62,803 nucleotides of DNA, taken from Bryobacteraceae bacterium. GTDB taxonomy: Bacteria > Acidobacteriota > Terriglobia > Bryobacterales > Bryobacteraceae. The notes under the pieces were generated by a model that ran no database searches, was not told the origin of the DNA, and saw nothing but the letters and a program-made list of their open reading frames with translations. The stretch lies in contig JASHNT010000116.1 of assembly GCA_030041495.1 (NCBI GenBank), positions 73,998 through 136,800 of the forward strand. The letters run 5' to 3'. Below, one piece after another: positions 22,821 to 28,642 of this stretch. Within the stretch, counting starts at the first letter, position 1, and every line of letters begins with the position of its first letter. A program made the position numbers and the translations under genes.

Positions 22821-23933
22821 CTAAGGGAAACTCGGTAGAATTACGGCATATGAGGGAGAGTTTGGCGCGGAGATACTATGTCTCCGGGCAGGTTCAGGGT
22901 GTCGGCTACAGGATGTTTGCACAGCGGACCGCGCGGGACTTGGGAATTCGAGGATGGGCTCGCAACCTTGCCGATGGCCGAGTCGAGGTGCTGGCCATGG
23001 GCGGCGGCCATCAACTGGAAGACTTCGAAGGCGAGCTGCGCGTGGGGCCTCCGCACGCCGAGGTGCGCGGGCTGGAAGTGGAAGAGACAACTCCGATGCA
23101 CGTGGAGGGATTCCATATCCGTTGACGGGCTCTCCTGCGGCGGGATGGGGCGGGTGAGTGGAATCAACGGGTTGTTGGGTTCGTTTCGCAGGAAGAGATT
23201 TGGCCGCGAATCCGGGACGGACAAGTTCACAGGAATCTTTTGAAGCCCGCAAAACGGCCAAACCAGATCCCCCTCCGGCAGGGCCTACGCCCTGCGGAGT
23301 GGGCTCGCGCCTTTGCGGTTGATTTTCTGAAGCCCGCAAAACGGCCAAACCAGGGTCCGATCCCGACGAGCTTACGCTCGGCGGGTCGTCCCCGCGCCTT
23401 TGCGGGCTGGCGGGCCAAGTTGTGCCGGGGAGGGAATCGGGGAAGTAGGGGGTGGAGGTTTTCGGGGCGGGGCGGGACTGGAGGTCGAGAAGGCGGGCGA
23501 GGGCTCGGCTAAATTGGCGATCGAGGGCGACGTCGTAGCGGAGGGTGAGCTCGGGCTGGAGGGAATCGGAAGAGGGTTTGAAGGCGAGGGCGGCGCGGAC
23601 TTCGGGCGTACCGAGGGCCGGGTCCTGAAGGGCAATCTCGCGGTCGAGAGCCACTTTCTGAAGGCCCCAGATGCGGAGCTGACGCCAGCGCGCGACGGCC
23701 ATGGTCTCGACCAGCATGAGTTGGGTTGCGGAGGCGGGGCGGAATTCCTCGATGAGGGCGCGGAGGAGTTCGAGGAAACGGGGCGTGGATTCTTCCTCGA
23801 GTACGACGGTGCGGGCGAGGAGGCCGTGACGGAGGCTGTTACGGGACGAGTTGAGTTTGCCTTGGATGGAGACGGGGCCTTTAGAGAGAGAGCCGTTGGC
23901 TCGGGAGGCGGCGGTTTGTTTGGGTGTTCGCAT
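22821..23933 (-). CDS. Acidobacterial multi-copy-type protein of unknown function; 3' half likely not native
   Basis: The open frame is 370 codons, but only the first ~175 (to about 23409) look like a protein family: an opening TPKQTAASRANGSLSKGPVS, then SRNSLRHGLLARTVVLEEES and VETMAVARWRQLRIWGLQKV. I recognise this type as a recurrent hypothetical family of acidobacteria, without known function. After that the frame runs through two copies of a repeated element (encoding GLAVLRASE and GLAVLRASK) and then antisense to acyP. The tail is Pro/Arg/Ser-rich. The simplest view is a real gene of about 175 codons whose original stop was lost when repeats entered. It precedes, in opposite orientation, the terminase locus. 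Confidence 0.55.
   Translation of the reverse strand: MRTPKQTAASRANGSLSKGPVSIQGKLNSSRNSLRHGLLARTVVLEEESTPRFLELLRALIEEFRPASATQLMLVETMAVARWRQLRIWGLQKVALDREIALQDPALGTPEVRAALAFKPSSDSLQPELTLRYDVALDRQFSRALARLLDLQSRPAPKTSTPYFPDSLPGTTWPASPQRRGDDPPSVSSSGSDPGLAVLRASENQPQRREPTPQGVGPAGGGSGLAVLRASKDSCELVRPGFAAKSLPAKRTQQPVDSTHPPHPAAGEPVNGYGIPPRASELSLPLPARAPRRAEAPRAARLRSLPVDGRRPWPAPRLGHRQGCEPILEFPSPARSAVQTSCSRHPEPARRHSISAPNSPSYAVILPSFP
22850..23125 (+). CDS. acyP: Acylphosphatase
   Basis: 91 residues. RRYYVSGQVQGVGYRMFAQR holds the acylphosphatase signature with the catalytic Arg (GVGYR) and GWARNLADGRVEVLAMG the catalytic Asn. It hydrolyses acyl phosphates such as 1,3-bisphosphoglycerate and carbamoyl phosphate. 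Full length. It runs antisense to the tail of the minus-strand frame 22821-23933; the conserved acylphosphatase sequence shows that the plus-strand reading is the real one here. Confidence 0.93.
   Translation: MRESLARRYYVSGQVQGVGYRMFAQRTARDLGIRGWARNLADGRVEVLAMGGGHQLEDFEGELRVGPPHAEVRGLEVEETTPMHVEGFHIR
23241..23413. repeat. Two copies of a 26-bp repeat with inverted Gcc-rich ends
   Basis: The 26-base sequence beginning TGAAGCCCGCAAAACGG occurs identically at 23241-23266 and 23328-23353. Each copy is followed after 45-60 bases by CGCGCCTTTGCGG (second copy extended to TTTGCGGGCT, 23399-23409), which pairs with AGCCCGCAAA. Each unit can therefore fold as a long hairpin, like REP-type elements. 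Sequence between differs. The unit lies in the 3' part of the minus-strand frame 22821-23933. Confidence 0.7.
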
Positions 23934-23954
23934 GGAACGCTCCTATGCGAGAAC

Positions 23955-23977
23955 TTTAGCCGCGGGTGGACGCGAAT
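23955..23977 (+). repeat. 23-bp direct repeat, left flank of the PRTase-SLOG cassette
   Basis: Starts TTTAGCCGCGGGTGGACG and continues CGAAT. It differs from the copy at 26358-26380 only at two positions (GG for AA) and has the same orientation. The pair brackets 2.4 kb. It lies 22 bases upstream of the start of the 23933 minus-strand gene. Confidence 0.75.
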
Positions 23978-24021
23978 GGGCTGGGGTTGGGGAGGGAAGT
24001 GGTTGGCGGGAAAGGCTCCTG

Positions 24022-24867
24022 CTAGCTTGCCTTCTCGTGTTTGCGGACTTCTTTTTCGAGTTCTGCGGCGAATGAATCGGCGTCGCTTTCGCGGATGAGT
24101 TCGGTCTTCACCGGTATCTTCTTGAGAATGTTCTGGGCCTTTACGAAGGCGGGTTGCAACTCGGCGTTCGACGGTTCGCCTAACAGAAGGTGGATTTGAA
24201 AGGGCTCCTTGCTTTCGCTAAGAGTTGTGGCACGGCCCAGCCAACGATTTGCTTTGTCGACGATCGACGTGCTCTCGACCAAATCGAAGGATACGGGTTC
24301 GTAAAGGTGCCAGACCTTGTTCTTCCATGCGTGCTCGAAGCGATACTCAAAGTTCGGAGCGGCAATTTGCTTGGGCGTTAGGTACGCGGTGACGTCACGG
24401 CGGTCCAAAGCCTCGCGGTATACGTTGCGCCAGACGTCGTCGTCCTCGCGGCGGGGAACGGCGCCAGTGTAGCGCTCGACGTAGCGGTCAAAAAGGTCGG
24501 CCACGGTCTGGCCGAGGTCGCGGCTTAACCCGACGCCCGCCGGAGAAAACTGCACGGAGCTATCATCCGGAGGCAGCACTTTGGCGAGCACCTGCTCGAT
24601 CGCGAGGCCCGGCTCGAAGGGAAACTTTGTGGCGAGGTCTTGGCCGATCGTGCTGAGCCGGTCCTCGATGTACCGGGTCAGTTGCCGGAACCGGTTCCCG
24701 TCGATTTTGGCAAACATGCGCGTGATCCGTGCGTAGTGGGTGGCACACCGCGCCCGCAGGAATTTCGCGTCGGGCGAGTAAACAGCGACTCCGATGTTGA
24801 CGAATTCCTGCGTAACGGAGTCATGGACGTAGCGTAGGACGCTGAAGCTATAAGGAATCTGATTCAT
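24022..24867 (-). CDS. DUF3037-domain protein
   Basis: 281 residues from the ATG at 24867, preceded by AGGAGG with a 5-base spacer. The N-terminal NQIPYSFSVLRYVHDSVTQE and FVNIGVAVYSPD define DUF3037, usually encoded next to a HipA-like kinase. Here the frame just upstream ends in a 4-base overlap (ATGA) and matches the end of such a kinase, but is broken (24864-25032). The C-terminal half (about residues 110-281) is not recognised. The function is unknown; HipA-like association suggests a toxin-antitoxin or regulatory role. Base composition differs from the flanking terminase locus. Confidence 0.75.
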   Translation of the reverse strand: MNQIPYSFSVLRYVHDSVTQEFVNIGVAVYSPDAKFLRARCATHYARITRMFAKIDGNRFRQLTRYIEDRLSTIGQDLATKFPFEPGLAIEQVLAKVLPPDDSSVQFSPAGVGLSRDLGQTVADLFDRYVERYTGAVPRREDDDVWRNVYREALDRRDVTAYLTPKQIAAPNFEYRFEHAWKNKVWHLYEPVSFDLVESTSIVDKANRWLGRATTLSESKEPFQIHLLLGEPSNAELQPAFVKAQNILKKIPVKTELIRESDADSFAAELEKEVRKHEKAS

Positions 24868-25032
24868 GCAAGCCTCCTGCTGACCTCCTCGGCAAATTCG
24901 TCGGTATGATCGGCGACGGCGCAAAGATGCTTGTCAATTCTGCCCAGGTCTTCATTGTTCCACTCCGCCGGTACTTCCGCCAGCATGTCATCGAGGCGGG
25001 CGCCTGGTAGTTTCTTCAGCGATGGCGCTCGT
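24864..25032 (-). pseudogene. 3' remnant of a HipA-like kinase gene
   Basis: In the frame that overlaps the DUF3037 start by four bases, the sequence reads SLKKLPGARLDDMLAEVPAE, then WNNEDLGRIDKH and ends EFAEEVSRRLA. The L-D-D-x-L-A-E-V-P-x-E-W segment resembles the C terminus of the HipA-like proteins that usually precede DUF3037 genes. No start codon or kinase domain remains upstream. Instead a different frame, MTVEGIKEAINTPPENERHR (25018-25077), abuts it and stops. The Met-Thr-Val-Glu-x-Ile-Lys start resembles small antitoxin-like proteins. The junction thus joins fragments of two genes. Assignment rests on short similarity and gene order. Confidence 0.5.
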
Positions 25033-25178
25033 TCTCGGGCGGAGTGTTGATGGCTTCTTTGATGCCTTCGACGGTCATACGCTCAACGTAACCCGGGGGT
25101 GGTTCTCTTGGAAGCAGGGAAGGCGACGAGGTGCCTCCTTCACGGCACTGGCGATGACGATGGACCGAAGGCCGGCAG

Positions 25179-25754
25179 TCAGGGGCGGGTTAATGAGGTT
25201 GAGGCGAGCTGGTTTTCCAGGCCCGGGGAGTGGCGGGTGTTGCCGAGCTTTGTGCGGATTTGGCGTTGCGCCTCCTGGATGTGCTCTGGCTCGCAGAGCC
25301 GCAGGAGGTCTTCAAGGTCTTGCTGGCTCGAGAGCTTGTGGAAGGTCTGCCGCGGGGCCAGGTAGACGAGCGTCTTCTTGCCGGCCGCTAACAGTTCCTG
25401 GATGTTGTTGAGAGTGCCCTTGCTCTTTCCATCCCACAGCATGACGCCGCATTTGGCGTCTTGGGTCATCTTCTGGTCTTTGGCCGCGTAGTAGGCGAAG
25501 TTGCGCGGCGTGCCCGGCGTCGTAATGTGGTTGGCCGGCCAGTTGCCCAGGTTGTTCCTGCAGGTGTCCATGCAATATACGACTACGTTTTGGTATCCGA
25601 CGGCGGCGAGGTAACCTTGGACAGCCTTGTCTGCGCCGTTGGCGTCCCCGACAAAGAAGACACATTGCCGCGACATCAAGTCGTCGAGCTTCTGGCGTAT
25701 GACCGCGTTAAGCCGTGAGACCGCTCGTGATCCGCCAATAAACACTGTCGTCAT
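25179..25754 (-). CDS. SLOG-fold (DprA/YpsA-like) nucleotide-binding protein
   Basis: 191 residues. VFIGGSRAVSRL (residues 4-15) is the G-G-S-R loop of SLOG/Rossmann-like proteins; FVGDANGADKAVQGYLAAV and MLWDGKSKGTLNNI match the second glycine loop and the W-D-G-x-S-x-G-T/N element of the YspA/cpYpsA-related group. The family is proposed to bind or process nucleotide-derived ligands, including in conflict systems (Burroughs and Aravind's nucleotide-centric analysis). Its ATG overlaps the PRTase stop (ATGA), so the two proteins are expected in fixed ratio. The C-terminal 40 residues are not conserved. Confidence 0.75.
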   Translation of the reverse strand: MTTVFIGGSRAVSRLNAVIRQKLDDLMSRQCVFFVGDANGADKAVQGYLAAVGYQNVVVYCMDTCRNNLGNWPANHITTPGTPRNFAYYAAKDQKMTQDAKCGVMLWDGKSKGTLNNIQELLAAGKKTLVYLAPRQTFHKLSSQQDLEDLLRLCEPEHIQEAQRQIRTKLGNTRHSPGLENQLASTSLTRP

Positions 25755-26344
25755 GAGAGTTTCCGCGTCTGCGTCAAGGTTAGCAAATAAACGCTCGCCG
25801 CGCCCGCGGCAGTCAATTGTTTCGCGATGGCACCAGCAGTGGCGCCTGACCGGTACAAGTCATCTAAAATGAGCACGCTCCGCCCGCGAATCTCCGCCGC
25901 TTCGATTGTGAACGCGTCCTTCAGGATTTCAGTGCGCTTGGCGTAGTCGAAAACGTCCTTCAACTGCGCCGTGCTGCGCACCTTCTTGATGCACGTCTCG
26001 CAAAGGCGGATCCCCGTTGCCGCGCTGAGCTGGGTTGCGATTTCGATCACGGGCTGTCTACGGCGGGCGCGGTCCGATGGAGGAACGGGCACGATCAGCT
26101 CGATCGCGGGATTCCACTTGTACAGGAACGCAACGAGAGTCTCGACGATCGGCGCGATGGCGGTTTCATCGCCGGTGTTCTTCAGGCGATAGAGTAGGTC
26201 GCCCAAAGGGGAGCGTGTGGTGTCAAAGACCGGATGCCCGAACGCGTTGTGACCGAGAAGCGTGCTGCTTACTGTATGGACATCAAGCGCGAAGCCGTCG
26301 CGCCAAGGGCCGCGGAGTTTCCTGGGATTAATGGAGACTGGCAT
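25751..26344 (-). CDS. ComF-like phosphoribosyltransferase
   Basis: 197 residues. The PRPP-binding loop VLILDDLYRSGAT (157-169) carries the two Asp and the Gly-Ala/Ser-Thr of PRTases; ELIVPVPPSDRARRRQPV (82-99) matches the ComF V-P-V-P-x-x-x-x-R-x-R-x-F region. No zinc finger of full ComF is seen at the N terminus. The substrate is unknown. It is the first gene of a minus-strand unit PRTase-SLOG-(HipA remnant)-DUF3037. A PRTase and a SLOG protein coupled in one operon suggest a nucleotide or nucleobase signal. Confidence 0.78.
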   Translation of the reverse strand: MPVSINPRKLRGPWRDGFALDVHTVSSTLLGHNAFGHPVFDTTRSPLGDLLYRLKNTGDETAIAPIVETLVAFLYKWNPAIELIVPVPPSDRARRRQPVIEIATQLSAATGIRLCETCIKKVRSTAQLKDVFDYAKRTEILKDAFTIEAAEIRGRSVLILDDLYRSGATAGAIAKQLTAAGAASVYLLTLTQTRKLS

Positions 26345-26357
26345 CTATAACAAGAAG

Positions 26358-26380
26358 TTTAGCCGCGAATGGACGCGAAT
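26358..26380 (+). repeat. 23-bp direct repeat, right flank of the PRTase-SLOG cassette
   Basis: Starts TTTAGCCGCGAATGGACG and ends CGAAT; 21 of 23 positions equal the left copy at 23955-23977. Located 13 bases upstream of the PRTase start and 90 bases before the small gene that opens the terminase locus. A third related copy is at 27502-27524. Confidence 0.75.
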
Positions 26381-26469
26381 AAAATCCTTGGATTTATTGC
26401 GGGTTAGCGATTTTGGGGAGAGTGGGCGGACGGAGCGGGGTGATAGGAGTGGGGCAGGAGGGTTGGGGG

Positions 26470-26718
26470 ATGAAACTGGACCGGGCGAAGTTGAGGCGGG
26501 ATGAGTTTGCGATACCGGAGCGGAGGGCGTATCCGATACCGGACCGGCTGCATGCGAGGCTGGCGCTGGATGAGGCGAACCGGGATCCGAATGGGAGGAC
26601 TCGGGCGAGGGTGAGGAGGGCGGTGAGCGAGAAGTTTCCGGAGCTGGCGGTGGACGCGGCGCATGACCATTTGCGGGATGTGACGGACGGGAGGGAGAAG
26701 AAACGAACGCGGCGGTGA
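26470..26718 (+). CDS. Small phage-type protein ahead of the terminase
   Basis: 82 residues from the ATG at 26470, which has AGGAGGG about 11 bases upstream. RDEFAIPERRAYPIPDRLHA followed by ARLALDEAN and ARVRRAVSEKFPEL shows the F-A-x-P-x-x-R-x-Y-P-I motif and two helices, a small domain I associate with phage structural and head-maturation genes (DUF6582-like). It overlaps the ATPase gene by four bases (GTGA), so it is translated with it. The function is unknown. Codons are rich in CGG/GGG/AGG, like the following two genes. Confidence 0.55.
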   Translation: MKLDRAKLRRDEFAIPERRAYPIPDRLHARLALDEANRDPNGRTRARVRRAVSEKFPELAVDAAHDHLRDVTDGREKKRTRR

Positions 26719-27506
26719 GCGGGTACACGTTTGGGCGACAACAGGCGGGACAGGGCGAAAGGCGAGTGGAGGCTCGGGAGGAGACGCCGGGGGTGGTGGA
26801 GTTTGCGGAGGGGCGGCTGGGGTTTTTTCCGGATGAGTCGCAAAAGAGACTGCTGAGAACGCGGGTGAGGCGGGGGATGGTGAAGTGCACGCGGCAGTGG
26901 GGAAAATCGACGGTGGCGGCGGTGATGGCGATTTACCGGGCCTATTTTCACGCGAAAAGCCTGATCGTGGTGGCGTGTCCGACGGAGAAACAGAGCGCGG
27001 AACTGGTGTGGAAGGCCCGGGACTTCGCGGTGAGGGCGGGAGTGAAGCTGAGGGGCGATGGGAGCAACCGGATCAGCCTGCGGTTTCCGAACGGGTCGAG
27101 GATTATCGGGATTCCGGGAAAAGAGGCGACGTTGCGAGGGTATTCGGCGGTGTCACTGTTGATCATCGACGAAGCTTCGCGGGTGGAGGATGCGGTGTAC
27201 AAGGCTTTGCGGCCGATGCTGGCGGTGGGGGATGGGGATTTGTGGCTACTGAGCACTCCGTTCGGCAAGCGGGGGTTCTTTTACGAGAACTGGGCGGGAG
27301 GGGATGAGGAGTGGACGCGGGTGGAGGTGAAGGCGACGGAATGTCCGCGAATTTCGAAGGAATTTCTGGAGGGAGAGCGGAAGCAATTGGGAGATGCGTG
27401 GTTCCGGCAGGAATATATGGGCGAATTTATCGATAACGATAGGCAGATGTTCGGGAGGGAATTAGTGATGGGCGCGTTGGAGGACGGGGACGCGCTGCAT
27501 TTTTAG
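26715..27506 (+). CDS. Terminase large-subunit ATPase domain as a separate gene
   Basis: 263 residues from a GTG start. The motor motifs are complete: Walker A-like CTRQWGKST (58-66), Walker B LLIIDEAS (148-155) and coupling motif LWLLSTPFGKRG (176-187), all typical of TerL packaging ATPases that drive DNA into phage heads. The frame stops in the linker that normally leads into the nuclease domain. The nuclease is encoded next, 16 bases on. No frameshift in the ATPase part is seen. Codon use is strongly biased to G-rich codons. It could be a functional split motor or a prophage relic. Confidence 0.8.
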   Translation: MSGYTFGRQQAGQGERRVEAREETPGVVEFAEGRLGFFPDESQKRLLRTRVRRGMVKCTRQWGKSTVAAVMAIYRAYFHAKSLIVVACPTEKQSAELVWKARDFAVRAGVKLRGDGSNRISLRFPNGSRIIGIPGKEATLRGYSAVSLLIIDEASRVEDAVYKALRPMLAVGDGDLWLLSTPFGKRGFFYENWAGGDEEWTRVEVKATECPRISKEFLEGERKQLGDAWFRQEYMGEFIDNDRQMFGRELVMGALEDGDALHF

Positions 27507-27524
27507 CCGTGAGTCAACACAAAT
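27502..27524 (+). repeat. Dispersed repeat copy at the ATPase/nuclease split
   Basis: TTTAGCCGTGAGTCAACACA then AAT, a diverged copy of the 23955/26358 repeat. Its TAG provides the ATPase stop codon (27504-27506) and its last bases enter the nuclease ATG (27523). The position suggests that the element split the gene. Confidence 0.6.
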
Positions 27525-28101
27525 GTACTTCATAGGGTTGGATTTGGGGCAGAGAAGGGATTATAGTGCCGTCGCGGTGGTGGAGAAAACGGATTGCCTG
27601 CATGTGAGGCATCTGGAGAGGCTGGCGCTGGGGACTCCGTATGCGGCGGTGGTGGCGCGGGTGAGCGAGATGGCGTGGCATCGGGAGCTGAGGGGAAACG
27701 TGAGGGTGGTGGTGGATGCGACGGGGGTGGGGGCTCCGGTGGTGGAGATGATGAGATCGGGGAGGGTGGGGTGCCGGGTGACGGCGGTGACGATTACGGG
27801 CGGCGAGCAGGAGCATGGACGGGGCGAGGATTGGCATGTTCCGAAGAAAGACTTGCTGAGCGGGGTGAGGGTGCTGCTGGAAGAGGGGCAGTTGAAAATT
27901 CAACGCGAGCTGGAAGAGGCGGCGACGCTGGTGCGCGAGCTGACGGAGATCCGAGTGCGGTACGCGGCGGGAGGGGGAATGCAGATGGGAGCGGAGGGCG
28001 CGGGCCAGCATGACGATCTGGCCGTGGCCGTGGCGCTGGCGTGCTGGAGGGCGCGGAGACGGGAGATCGGGTGGGGGACGAGGAGGCTGCCGGGGGTTTA
28101 G
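27523..28101 (+). CDS. Terminase large-subunit nuclease domain (RNase H-like) as a separate gene
   Basis: 192 residues. The RNase H-fold nuclease of TerL is shown by YFIGLDLGQRRDYSAVAVV (Asp7), VVVDATGVGAPVVEMM (Asp65) and GQHDDLAVAVALACW (Asp164/165), all catalytic acids kept. Together with the preceding ATPase (263 residues) this equals a normal TerL of about 450 residues. It starts at an ATG without a clear ribosome site. It precedes apt, on the same strand but unrelated. Shares the G-rich codon use of the ATPase gene. No small terminase, portal or capsid gene lies in the window. Confidence 0.78.
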   Translation: MYFIGLDLGQRRDYSAVAVVEKTDCLHVRHLERLALGTPYAAVVARVSEMAWHRELRGNVRVVVDATGVGAPVVEMMRSGRVGCRVTAVTITGGEQEHGRGEDWHVPKKDLLSGVRVLLEEGQLKIQRELEEAATLVRELTEIRVRYAAGGGMQMGAEGAGQHDDLAVAVALACWRARRREIGWGTRRLPGV

Positions 28102-28126: not shown

Positions 28127-28642
28127 ATGGACCATCTCAAGAGCCTGATCCGCGAAGTTCCCGATTTTCCGAAGCCTGGAATCAATTTTTTCGACATCAC
28201 CACGCTGCTGAAGGACGCCGGAGGTTTGAAGGCGGTAATCGACGGCCTGGCGGGGCATTACGCCGGGAAAGGGATTCAGACGGTGGCGGGGATCGAGGCG
28301 CGCGGGTTTATTTTCGCTCCCGCCGTGGCGCACGTGCTGGGCGCGGGGTTTGTGCCGATTCGCAAACCGAAGAAGCTGCCGGCGGAGACGGAACGGGTGG
28401 AGTATGCGCTGGAATACGGCACCGATGTGGTGGAGATCCATCGCGACGCGGTCGAGCCGGGGCAGAAGGTGCTGATTGTCGATGACGTGCTGGCGACGGG
28501 AGGGACGGCGTCGGCGGCCGCGCGGCTGGTGGAAAAGCTGGGCGGAAAGGTCGCGGGGCTGGGATTCGTGATCGAGCTGGACTTTTTGCACGGCAGCGAC
28601 AAGCTGGCGGGGCGCGACGTGTATTCGCTGATTCATTATTAG
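28127..28642 (+). CDS. apt: Adenine phosphoribosyltransferase
   Basis: 171 residues. Complete [23 protein letters not shown] at the N terminus, [19 protein letters not shown] for the nucleobase pocket, and the PRPP loop [17 protein letters not shown]. It salvages adenine to AMP. It is followed after 4 bases by ispE and heads the housekeeping run to rplI. Confidence 0.94.

What the first reader, a model, noticed from the sequence alone, without database searches (positions are those of the whole stretch)
23955..26380. Repeat-bracketed PRTase-SLOG-HipA'-DUF3037 cassette inside a terminase locus
Two direct repeats (21 of 23 positions identical, same orientation) lie at 23955-23977 and 26358-26380. 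Between them sit only four minus-strand genes: ComF-like PRTase, SLOG protein, a broken HipA-like gene and a DUF3037 protein, joined by ATGA overlaps. Outside the repeats both sides belong to a G-rich locus (RHGLLA-type gene; split terminase). Seen in sequence: repeats, order, overlaps, base composition. Known: SLOG proteins and PRTases are proposed parts of nucleotide-based conflict systems; DUF3037 normally pairs with HipA-like kinases. Inference: a small mobile defence or signalling cassette that entered between, or is excised through, these repeats.
Basis: partly seen in the sequence, partly recalled or inferred. Interest (0 to 1): 0.82.

Follow-up and report, generated by a model that had tools for sequence, protein, structure and literature searches.

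The report
Mobile PRTase–SLOG toxin–antitoxin-like pair
A two-gene module that looks like a cell-poisoning enzyme and its antidote sits, next to the wreck of a second such module, inside an extra DNA element of a bacterial genome, and relatives of this gene pair travel in other bacteria as small self-contained cassettes.

Summary
In detail: two 28-nt direct repeats (25/28 identical) bracket PRTase, SLOG, a HipA remnant and DUF3037. The repeats are not the borders: they belong to a dispersed family (22 places with up to 2 mismatches), and homology to another RHGLLA copy runs through the left repeat to 24010. The four genes are not one unit: no DUF3037, HipA or terminase was found in 95 fetched SLOG loci (duplicates included). 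Two stacked modules are present: PRTase–SLOG, and a decayed HipA–DUF3037 (HipAD) system that keeps the antidote. All lie in a 5.0-kb RHGLLA–terminase segment between acylphosphatase and apt, which adjoin in two same-genus genomes. The pair is most likely a toxin–antitoxin/abortive-infection module akin to ShosTA/PsyrTA: order kept in 69 of 79 loci, correlated divergence, PRPP motif, SLOG fused elsewhere to two antitoxin domains. Elsewhere the pair alone is repeat-bracketed (attC-like sites, tRNA ends): 8 of 68 loci against 4 of 756 control intervals. A YpsA-type SLOG–PRTase gene pair is already in print (PMC6459960) as a neighbourhood; I found no toxin–antitoxin reading or cassette report.

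The parts
22850..23125 (+). acylphosphatase gene (named by eye), left host neighbour of the insertion
   Evidence: its match lies 9 and 18 bases from the apt match in G300 and G117
23148..24010 (.). RHGLLA unit (gene plus upstream region that contains the left repeat)
   Evidence: 23148-23189 and 23415-24010 match the C86 copy of the same genome, 90% and 88%
23478..23933 (-). conserved N-terminal part (152 aa) of the RHGLLA gene; its open frame runs on to 22821
   Evidence: 4 copies in the own genome; no Pfam or PHROG family
23950..23977 (+). left copy of the dispersed repeat
   Evidence: a copy also stands 24 bp from the start of the C86 RHGLLA gene
24022..24867 (-). DUF3037 protein (281 aa), antidote half of HipAD / PDC-M66
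   Evidence: PF11236 1.9e-20; PDC-M66B 3.3e-84
24864..25034 (-). remnant of the HipA-like kinase gene: its C-terminal 56 residues only
   Evidence: 52% identical to residues 154-209 of the HipA-like frame beside DUF3037 in genome G300; the 72-aa open stretch has no Pfam match above chance
25179..25754 (-). SLOG-type protein (191 aa), proposed antitoxin/sensor
   Evidence: homologues paired with the PRTase in 69 of 79 loci; remote matches to SLOG families
25751..26344 (-). ComF-like phosphoribosyltransferase (197 aa), proposed toxin
   Evidence: PADLOC PsyrT 1.1e-18, ShosT 1.3e-9; PRPP motif in 52 of 55 pairs
26353..26380 (+). right copy of the dispersed repeat, 8 nt upstream of the PRTase start
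26470..26718 (+). small gene of the terminase unit
   Evidence: 77% identical homologue in the C61 paralogue
26715..27506 (+). terminase large subunit, ATPase part
   Evidence: PF03237 3.6e-10; phrog_7579 3.9e-50
27523..28101 (+). terminase large subunit, nuclease-like part as a separate gene
   Evidence: Terminase_6C 0.002, below its cut-off; phrog_27743 5.6e-36
28127..28642 (+). apt gene, right host neighbour of the insertion
   Evidence: named adenine phosphoribosyltransferase by eye, not by a family search

Best explanation
The live part of the block is a two-gene toxin–antitoxin-type module. The ComF-like PRTase is the toxin: by analogy with ShosT and RqlH/PsyrT it would act on PRPP and bases or nucleotides and upset the nucleotide pool or DNA. 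The SLOG protein, translated from an overlapping start, is the antitoxin: it binds the PRTase and a nucleotide-like or DNA-derived signal, and loss of binding (phage infection, DNA damage, loss of the gene) frees the toxin and stops growth. It landed in or beside an older HipA–DUF3037 (HipAD) module, of which only the antidote and a kinase stub remain, on the 5' side of an RHGLLA gene inside a 5-kb RHGLLA–terminase insertion. Shown: genes, pairing, correlated divergence, fusions, motif conservation, the HipA remnant, the empty outer site in two genomes, repeat-bracketed copies of the pair elsewhere. Inferred: toxicity, neutralisation, trigger, phage defence, and the order of the insertions.
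For: Pairing: PRTase directly upstream of SLOG on the same strand in 69 of 79 genome loci, profile ends 17 nt apart or less, in records titled Acidobacteria, Planctomycetes, Latescibacteria, Chloroflexi, Proteobacteria classes, Nitrospirales and others. Divergence of the two proteins is correlated: r=0.59 over 55 pairs, 1000 permutations reach at most 0.15 (shared ancestry of the hosts contributes to this). PRPP motif in 52 of 55; GDANGAD-type motif in 55 of 55. The PRTase matches PADLOC PsyrT and ShosT. SLOG is fused to the 'addiction module antidote' domain PF21716 (L046, L067, L147) and, in Thiothrix (L125), to the Fic antitoxin YhfG (PF10832) before an overlapping Fic gene. Asymmetry in 299 genomes of the class: all 8 PRTases of this family in one full-length frame have SLOG beside them (G053's SLOG is cut by the contig end), whereas in 7 of 15 genomes with SLOG the PRTase is absent or broken. 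Mobility: 98 plasmid records with SLOG, 55 typed conjugative. Print: the RqlH PRTase domain is needed for toxicity and RqlI binds it (PMC4670107, passages); DprA+PRTase protects against T7 and lambda (PMC9122126, passages); DUF3037 deletion makes the HipA system toxic (PMC12548924, passages).
Against: No toxicity or phage test exists for this pair. No PADLOC model matches the window's SLOG at E up to 1. SLOG has no PRTase beside it in 10 of 79 loci (L133 lies at a contig edge, L073 and L074 are the same sequence) and none is annotated beside it in the two rhizobial plasmid stretches read (that gene table is incomplete), so SLOG can serve other partners. The asymmetry is weaker than it looks: in 2 of the 7 genomes (G075, G249) the SLOG is incomplete too, and broken frames in metagenome assemblies may be sequencing errors. 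In RqlH the isolated PRTase domain was not sufficient for toxicity. Print offers another frame: a YpsA-type SLOG–PRTase pair discussed in terms of nucleotide signals and conflict systems (PMC6459960, section 14 read). No phage record in the collection holds the SLOG, and the viral-contig scan gave 4.
Confidence: 0.68

Rival explanations
1. One reading: a four-gene cassette entered between, or is excised through, the two 23-nt repeats.
For: The repeats sit close to both ends of the block; the right copy lies 8 nt before the PRTase start, near where borders of bracketed copies fall elsewhere.
Against: Dispersed family, 22 places; left homology to C86 continues past the repeat to 24010; the genes do not travel together; the pair itself has no flanking exact repeat over 9 nt within 300 bp in the window.
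Confidence: 0.1
2. The pair is a nucleotide signalling or salvage unit (PRTase makes a nucleotide, SLOG hydrolyses or senses it) with no toxin role.
For: SLOG proteins include base-releasing enzymes and nucleotide sensors (PMC9503650, passages); a YpsA-type SLOG branch paired with a PRTase is described beside conflict systems with nucleotide signals (PMC6459960, section 14); 20 columns are invariant in 30 SLOG sequences, as expected of a ligand pocket.
Against: Antitoxin-domain fusions, plasmid carriage and attC-like brackets, patchy distribution (15 of 299 genomes), the asymmetry.
Confidence: 0.2
3. Decayed leftovers: both modules are degenerating junk in an old insertion.
For: The HipA gene is reduced to 56 residues; some RHGLLA and terminase copies in relatives contain stops.
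Against: The PRTase and SLOG frames are full length with conserved motifs.
Confidence: 0.1

Closest known systems
YpsA-type SLOG paired with a PRTase (branch of the YpsA family tree in PMC6459960)
   Same: [quoted passage not shown] the window family has GAD within GDANGAD, which fits the GxD/E signature named there (motif in 55 of 55)
   Different: Whether it is the same branch is not shown: the window protein has no Pfam match, 1 of 30 relatives matches PF06908 YpsA (0.026) and 7 match PF10686 YAcAr (best 0.0018); that paper gives no toxin or cassette reading in the section read
ShosTA (PRTase toxin + DprA-like antitoxin)
   Same: Stand-alone PRTase with an adjacent Rossmann-type partner; ShosT model matches at 1.3e-9
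   Different: The window SLOG has no PADLOC match and no Pfam DprA match; 11 of 30 relatives match DprA weakly, best 8e-5, so kinship is remote
PsyrTA / RqlHI
   Same: PRTase domain similar (PsyrT 1.1e-18, positions 540-686 of 689)
   Different: No helicase part: 197 aa against a 689-position model; partner not recognised as DprA
HipAD / DS-6 / PDC-M66 (HipA-like kinase + DUF3037)
   Same: DUF3037 protein matches PDC-M66B at 3.3e-84
   Different: The kinase is only a 56-residue C-terminal remnant here
ComF / GntX (competence, DNA utilisation)
   Same: PRTase domain and motif (TIGR00201 40 bits)
   Different: Far below the 233.55-bit cut-off; the 26 lower-scoring hits have frames of 256-404 aa, and of their genomes only G113 has a SLOG match
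Toxin–antitoxin gene cassettes of integrons (recalled)
   Same: In L114 and L118 the pair lies between two attC-like 60-nt sites (the one from L114 folds)
   Different: In the window no such site or flanking repeat surrounds the pair

Membership tests
ShosTA/PsyrTA-type toxin–antitoxin | PRTase with PRPP motif | tested here: met
ShosTA/PsyrTA-type toxin–antitoxin | DprA-family antitoxin | tested here: not met
   window protein: no PADLOC match at E up to 1, no Pfam match at 0.1. Remote kinship: 11 of 30 relatives match PF02481, best 8e-5; hhalign probability 41, E 2.8e-4
ShosTA/PsyrTA-type toxin–antitoxin | two-gene operon of PRTase and partner | tested here: met
   69 of 79 loci
ShosTA/PsyrTA-type toxin–antitoxin | toxicity of the PRTase relieved by the partner | not testable with these tools
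   needs expression tests
PsyrTA / RqlHI | RecQ-like helicase fused to the PRTase | tested here: not met
   197-aa protein, only the C-terminal part of the model is matched
HipAD / PDC-M66 | DUF3037 protein | tested here: met
HipAD / PDC-M66 | intact HipA-like kinase | tested here: not met
   only residues 154-209 of the G300 homologue align
SLOG superfamily | sequence kinship to SLOG families | tested here: met
   weak but consistent: the two most frequent Pfam matches of 30 relatives are DprA (11) and YAcAr (7), with YpsA in 1; DprA profile alignment. The window protein alone matches no Pfam family
SLOG superfamily | SLOG fold | not tested
   structure prediction switched off; no solved relative found
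YpsA proper (SLOG clade) | match to the YpsA model | tested here: not met
   1 of 30 relatives at 0.026, the window protein none
integron cassette | attC-like site at the cassette border | tested here: not met
   window: longest exact repeat within 300 bp on both sides of the pair is 9 nt; attC-like sites present at L114 and L118
ComF | score above the curated cut-off | tested here: not met
   40 of 233.55 bits

The most novel reading that the evidence does not exclude
PRTase–SLOG is a widespread toxin–antitoxin family not yet described as such, in which the two partners work on the same N-glycosidic chemistry (the PRTase makes a toxic nucleotide, the SLOG protein senses or undoes it), and the bare 1.2-kb pair is itself a minimal mobile unit that enters genomes without its own recombinase, through attC sites, tRNA-gene ends and other duplicated targets.
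Probability: 0.15. Interest if true: 0.85.

Novelty: new variant of a known kind. Interest (0 to 1): 0.5.

Why it matters
PRTase effectors of ShosTA, PsyrTA and retrons are known; the partners I met in print are DprA-like proteins and retron parts, and a YpsA-type SLOG–PRTase gene pair without an assigned role. If the window's family is a toxin–antitoxin pair, the Rossmann-type partner is an exchangeable control part (fused in relatives to two unrelated antitoxin domains), and a short system is at hand in which the PRTase chemistry and its trigger can be tested. Copies bracketed by attC-like sites or tRNA ends with nothing else inside are a natural case of a gene pair as a very small travelling unit.

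Tried and rejected
Rejected: the repeats as cassette borders; the four genes as one unit (the blank answer was repeated with positive controls); the PRTase as ComF. Led nowhere: a solved relative of SLOG (none convincing); SLOG in phage records (none); viral contigs (4 loci, not followed); a Pfam name for the HipA remnant (one unrelated weak match at 0.16; solved by comparison with G300); Burroughs et al. 2015 on SLOG systems is not held. My own slip: the query for the small terminase gene was one base out of frame; one search repeats it in frame (only the window and the C61 paralogue match among the loci).

Papers. Searches. One search was noise; two searches were empty; one search listed 20 papers, of which I opened two (PMC9122126, PMC12593503, passages). 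On a SLOG–PRTase pair these searches gave one statement: PMC6459960 (section 14 and passages) names a branch where YpsA pairs with a PRTase. In the passages of PMC9503650 and PMC7824862 I saw no such pair. I found no report of toxicity, neutralisation or cassette mobility of it, in open-licence papers only. Pu et al. 2025 on ShosTA was seen only as cited in a review (PMC12593503, passages).

Weak points. Toxin–antitoxin genes beside RHGLLA were picked partly by eye, unblinded and post hoc; two by-eye candidates (L227, L235) had no Pfam match and are not counted; left out of that test were all 20 matches of G069, one of 2 in G311, two of 7 in G317 and one edge copy in G093. One search scored at most 6 candidates per genome, so copy numbers are lower bounds. 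Control intervals come from the same loci and are not independent of one another. One SLOG locus (L068) has a remote RHGLLA-family frame 0.3 kb from a SLOG fragment, which my E-value cut missed.
Full report
THE OBSERVATION. Two direct repeats lie at 23950-23977 and 26353-26380, 25 of 28 positions identical (21 of 23 for the stretch named). With up to 3 mismatches the pattern is expected 0.01 times per shuffled window and found twice. Between them are PRTase (25751-26344), SLOG (25179-25754), a HipA remnant (24864-25034) and DUF3037 (24022-24867), all minus strand. ATGA overlaps join PRTase/SLOG and HipA'/DUF3037; about 145 nt separate SLOG from HipA'.

THE REPEATS ARE NOT THE BORDERS. A 21-letter core of the repeat matches 22 places in the 6.1-Mb genome with up to 2 mismatches, the window's two included, with 0 for the reversed control. 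The RHGLLA gene has 4 copies in this genome; repeats stand near three of them (two at C86, two at C119, and the window's own) and none was found near the C61 copy. At C86 the upstream repeat is 24 bp from the gene start, as in the window. The C86 copy matches the window at 88% from 23415 to 24010, straight through the left repeat, so the left junction lies between 24010 and the end of DUF3037 at 24022. The right copy resembles the same upstream region over 33 nt; its origin is open. With 25 of 28 positions identical in broken runs, excision by ordinary recombination between the two copies is unlikely (inference).

AN OUTER INSERTION WITH EMPTY SITES. In the window 5001 bases lie between acylphosphatase and apt. 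In same-genus genomes G300 and G117 the two tblastn matches are 9 and 18 bases apart; in G161 and G305 a frame of about 340 aa, fructose-bisphosphatase-like by eye, lies between them. I fetched 10 apt loci of the 22 genomes with an apt match; the acylphosphatase was found in 4 of the 10. So RHGLLA–block–small–terminase is an insertion relative to two genomes. A paralogue of the terminase in the same genome (C61) is 82% identical in the ATPase part; between it and the C61 RHGLLA copy, 7.4 kb away, lie other genes, among them an integrase and a PIN-domain gene. In G093, RHGLLA and terminase are about 200-300 bp apart at C95 and C57 (the C57 terminase contains a stop), and about 4 kb apart at C63 with DUF433, HigB/HTH genes and an amylase-like gene between.

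THE TWO MODULES. DUF3037 matches PF11236 (1.9e-20) and PDC-M66B (3.3e-84). Its partner in print is a HipA-like kinase; deletion of DUF3037 was toxic and the authors read it as the neutraliser (PMC12548924, passages; named HipAD in PMC13092281, passages). In genome G300 the DUF3037 homologue (65% identical) follows a HipA-like frame; only residues 154-209 of that frame have a counterpart here, 52% identical. So the kinase is gone and the antidote is left. The PRTase matches PADLOC PsyrT (1.1e-18) and ShosT (1.3e-9); the window's SLOG matches nothing in PADLOC (E up to 1) or Pfam (E up to 0.1), and in NCBIfam only one weak unrelated model (0.2).

PRTase–SLOG AS A CONSERVED PAIR. A scan of genome contigs with a SLOG alignment found 217 coding relatives, 79 loci kept. 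PRTase lies directly upstream on the same strand in 69 of 79; in 54 it covers at least 180 profile positions in one open stretch; 76 of the SLOG sequences are distinct. In 299 genomes drawn from the window's class, SLOG occurs in 15 and the PRTase family proper in 14 (55 bits or more; the 26 lower hits, with frames of 256-404 aa, I read as ComF), one of these a 54-aa remnant without SLOG in G173. The 8 PRTases in one full-length frame (G000, G219, G088, G202, G089, G053, G041, G007) all have SLOG beside them, G053's cut by the contig end. In 7 of the 15 genomes with SLOG the PRTase is absent (G231, G075) or broken (G113, G164, G142, G249, G288); in G075 and G249 the SLOG is incomplete too. Divergences of 55 pairs correlate at r=0.59; 1000 permutations give at most 0.15; host relatedness adds to this. 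The DDxxx[ST]G[AS]T motif is present in 52 of 55.

WHY A TOXIN–ANTITOXIN READING. SLOG carries a C-terminal PF21716 'addiction module antidote' domain in L046, L067 and L147 (L047 by its annotation). In Thiothrix, SLOG without a PRTase is fused to the Fic antitoxin YhfG (2.9e-17) and followed by an overlapping Fic gene (4.3e-17) in L125; L116 shows the same by eye and has a Fic gene 93% identical to L125's at the same place, and L124 has a shorter SLOG frame with the Fic gene about 0.4 kb downstream. 98 of 72,556 plasmid records carry SLOG, 55 of them typed conjugative. In one Enterobacter plasmid an IS3 element lies before a 112-aa gene that precedes SLOG; I read the short gene as a PRTase remnant. 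The known relatives act this way in print: the RqlH PRTase domain is needed for toxicity and RqlI binds it (PMC4670107, passages), a DprA–PRTase pair protects against T7 and lambda (PMC9122126, passages), and ShosT is reported to disturb purine metabolism (review PMC12593503, passages).

THE PAIR AS A MOBILE CASSETTE ELSEWHERE. For 68 distinct pair loci, the window included, I took the longest exact direct repeat between the 300 bp on either side: 17 nt or more in 8 of 68, against 4 of 756 same-length intervals placed at random in the same loci (Fisher one-sided p=5e-7). The eight: L136 (122 nt), L138 (63 nt of a tRNA-Ala gene), L114 and L118 (60-nt sites with CCTAAC...GTTAGG ends; the L114 site folds into a hairpin, z -6.4; the attC form is recalled), L083 (22 nt), L107 and L145 (18 nt; L145's is a palindrome and may be a terminator), L142 (17 nt across the end of a tRNA-Gln gene). 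In L138 the 1.27-kb unit holds only PRTase and SLOG, and I saw no integrase by eye in the called frames printed (2.5-10.5 kb of the locus). In 95 fetched SLOG loci (3 plasmid stretches and 92 genome loci, 80 of the 92 with a PRTase match, 80 distinct SLOG sequences; median length 10.3 kb) no DUF3037, HipA, terminase or small-gene match was found at E 1e-3. For RHGLLA the same cut gave none, but L068 has a remote family member 0.3 kb from a SLOG fragment (E 2e-5 to 5e-4 by blastp). In the window the longest repeat around the pair is 9 nt, chance level.

WHAT THE SLOG PROTEIN IS. hhalign of 30 SLOG sequences against 12 DprA domains from relatives gives probability 41 and E 2.8e-4 over 125 columns, with GSR and GDANGAD opposite GTR and SGMARGID. 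Of the 30, 11 match Pfam DprA (best 8e-5), 7 match the SLOG family YAcAr (best 0.0018) and 1 matches YpsA (0.026) at E up to 0.1. So it is a SLOG-type protein, remote from DprA and from YpsA proper. Twenty columns are invariant in the 30. The structure tool was off, so the fold is not shown.

WHAT IS IN PRINT ABOUT THE PAIR. PMC6459960 (2019; [quoted passage not shown] The window's family may be that branch; I could not compare sequences. The pairing as such is therefore not new. The toxin–antitoxin reading, the antitoxin fusions and the repeat-bracketed copies I did not find in print (searches listed under Tried and rejected). On checking I lowered the interest from 0.55 to 0.5 and the confidence from 0.70 to 0.68, and raised the signalling rival from 0.17 to 0.2, for this and for the weaker asymmetry.

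SIDE RESULT. In 23 RHGLLA loci of four genomes, Pfam-backed toxin–antitoxin genes lie within 3.5 kb on the 5' side in 7 of the 22 loci other than the window (two of the 7 show a single Phd-type antitoxin gene), on the 3' side in 1 of 22, and in distant control stretches of 5.5 kb in 1 of 17. Fisher one-sided p=0.023 and 0.052. Candidates were picked by eye and unblinded, the family tallies show only 25 families, and some 5' stretches are cut by contig ends, so this is a lead.

VERDICT. A real and good observation with the wrong borders: two stacked conflict modules, one dead and one apparently intact, inside a larger insertion. The intact one is a variant of PRTase-based toxin–antitoxin systems that is repeat-bracketed, as a pair, in some other genomes.

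Noticed in passing
window 22821-28101; L049, L050, L051, L148-L159: RHGLLA gene plus terminase forms a multi-copy element: terminase matches in 46 of 399 genomes of the class, all 46 of the window's own family. RHGLLA lies close by in several.
   Followed up: partly
RHGLLA loci L225-L240, L050, L051, L148: Toxin–antitoxin genes seem to gather on the 5' side of RHGLLA genes (7 of 22 against 1 of 22 and 1 of 17; post hoc, partly by eye).
   Followed up: partly
L125:6001-7321 (Thiothrix caldifontis): SLOG fused to the Fic antitoxin YhfG, with an overlapping Fic toxin gene downstream.
   Followed up: partly
L138:5257-6748: PRTase–SLOG pair alone between a tRNA-Ala gene and a 63-nt copy of its 3' part; a third, shorter copy of the tRNA end lies about 130 bp further on.
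   Followed up: partly
L136:5227-6752: 122-nt exact duplication around the pair that includes the start of a gene that looks like fmt (by eye).
   Followed up: no
window 23235-23405; L007 1410-1500: A second repeat (GAAGCCCGCAAAACGGCCAAACCAG ... CGCCTTTGCGG) occurs twice in the RHGLLA gene's 3' part; a similar stretch stands beside the C119 RHGLLA copy.
   Followed up: no
window 26715-28101; L049, G311:C79, G317:C50, G069:C27: The terminase large subunit is split into two genes in the window and its C61 paralogue, and its ATPase part stands in a short frame in G311:C79 and G317:C50; in G069:C27 the frame is 525 aa, unsplit.
   Followed up: no
L286, L287 (Mesorhizobium and Aquibium plasmids): SLOG with no annotated PRTase sits beside different toxin–antitoxin pairs at a similar backbone position.
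   Followed up: no
L068:2740-4137: A SLOG fragment lies 0.3 kb from a remote RHGLLA-family frame, the one SLOG locus outside the window where I saw the two families meet.
   Followed up: no
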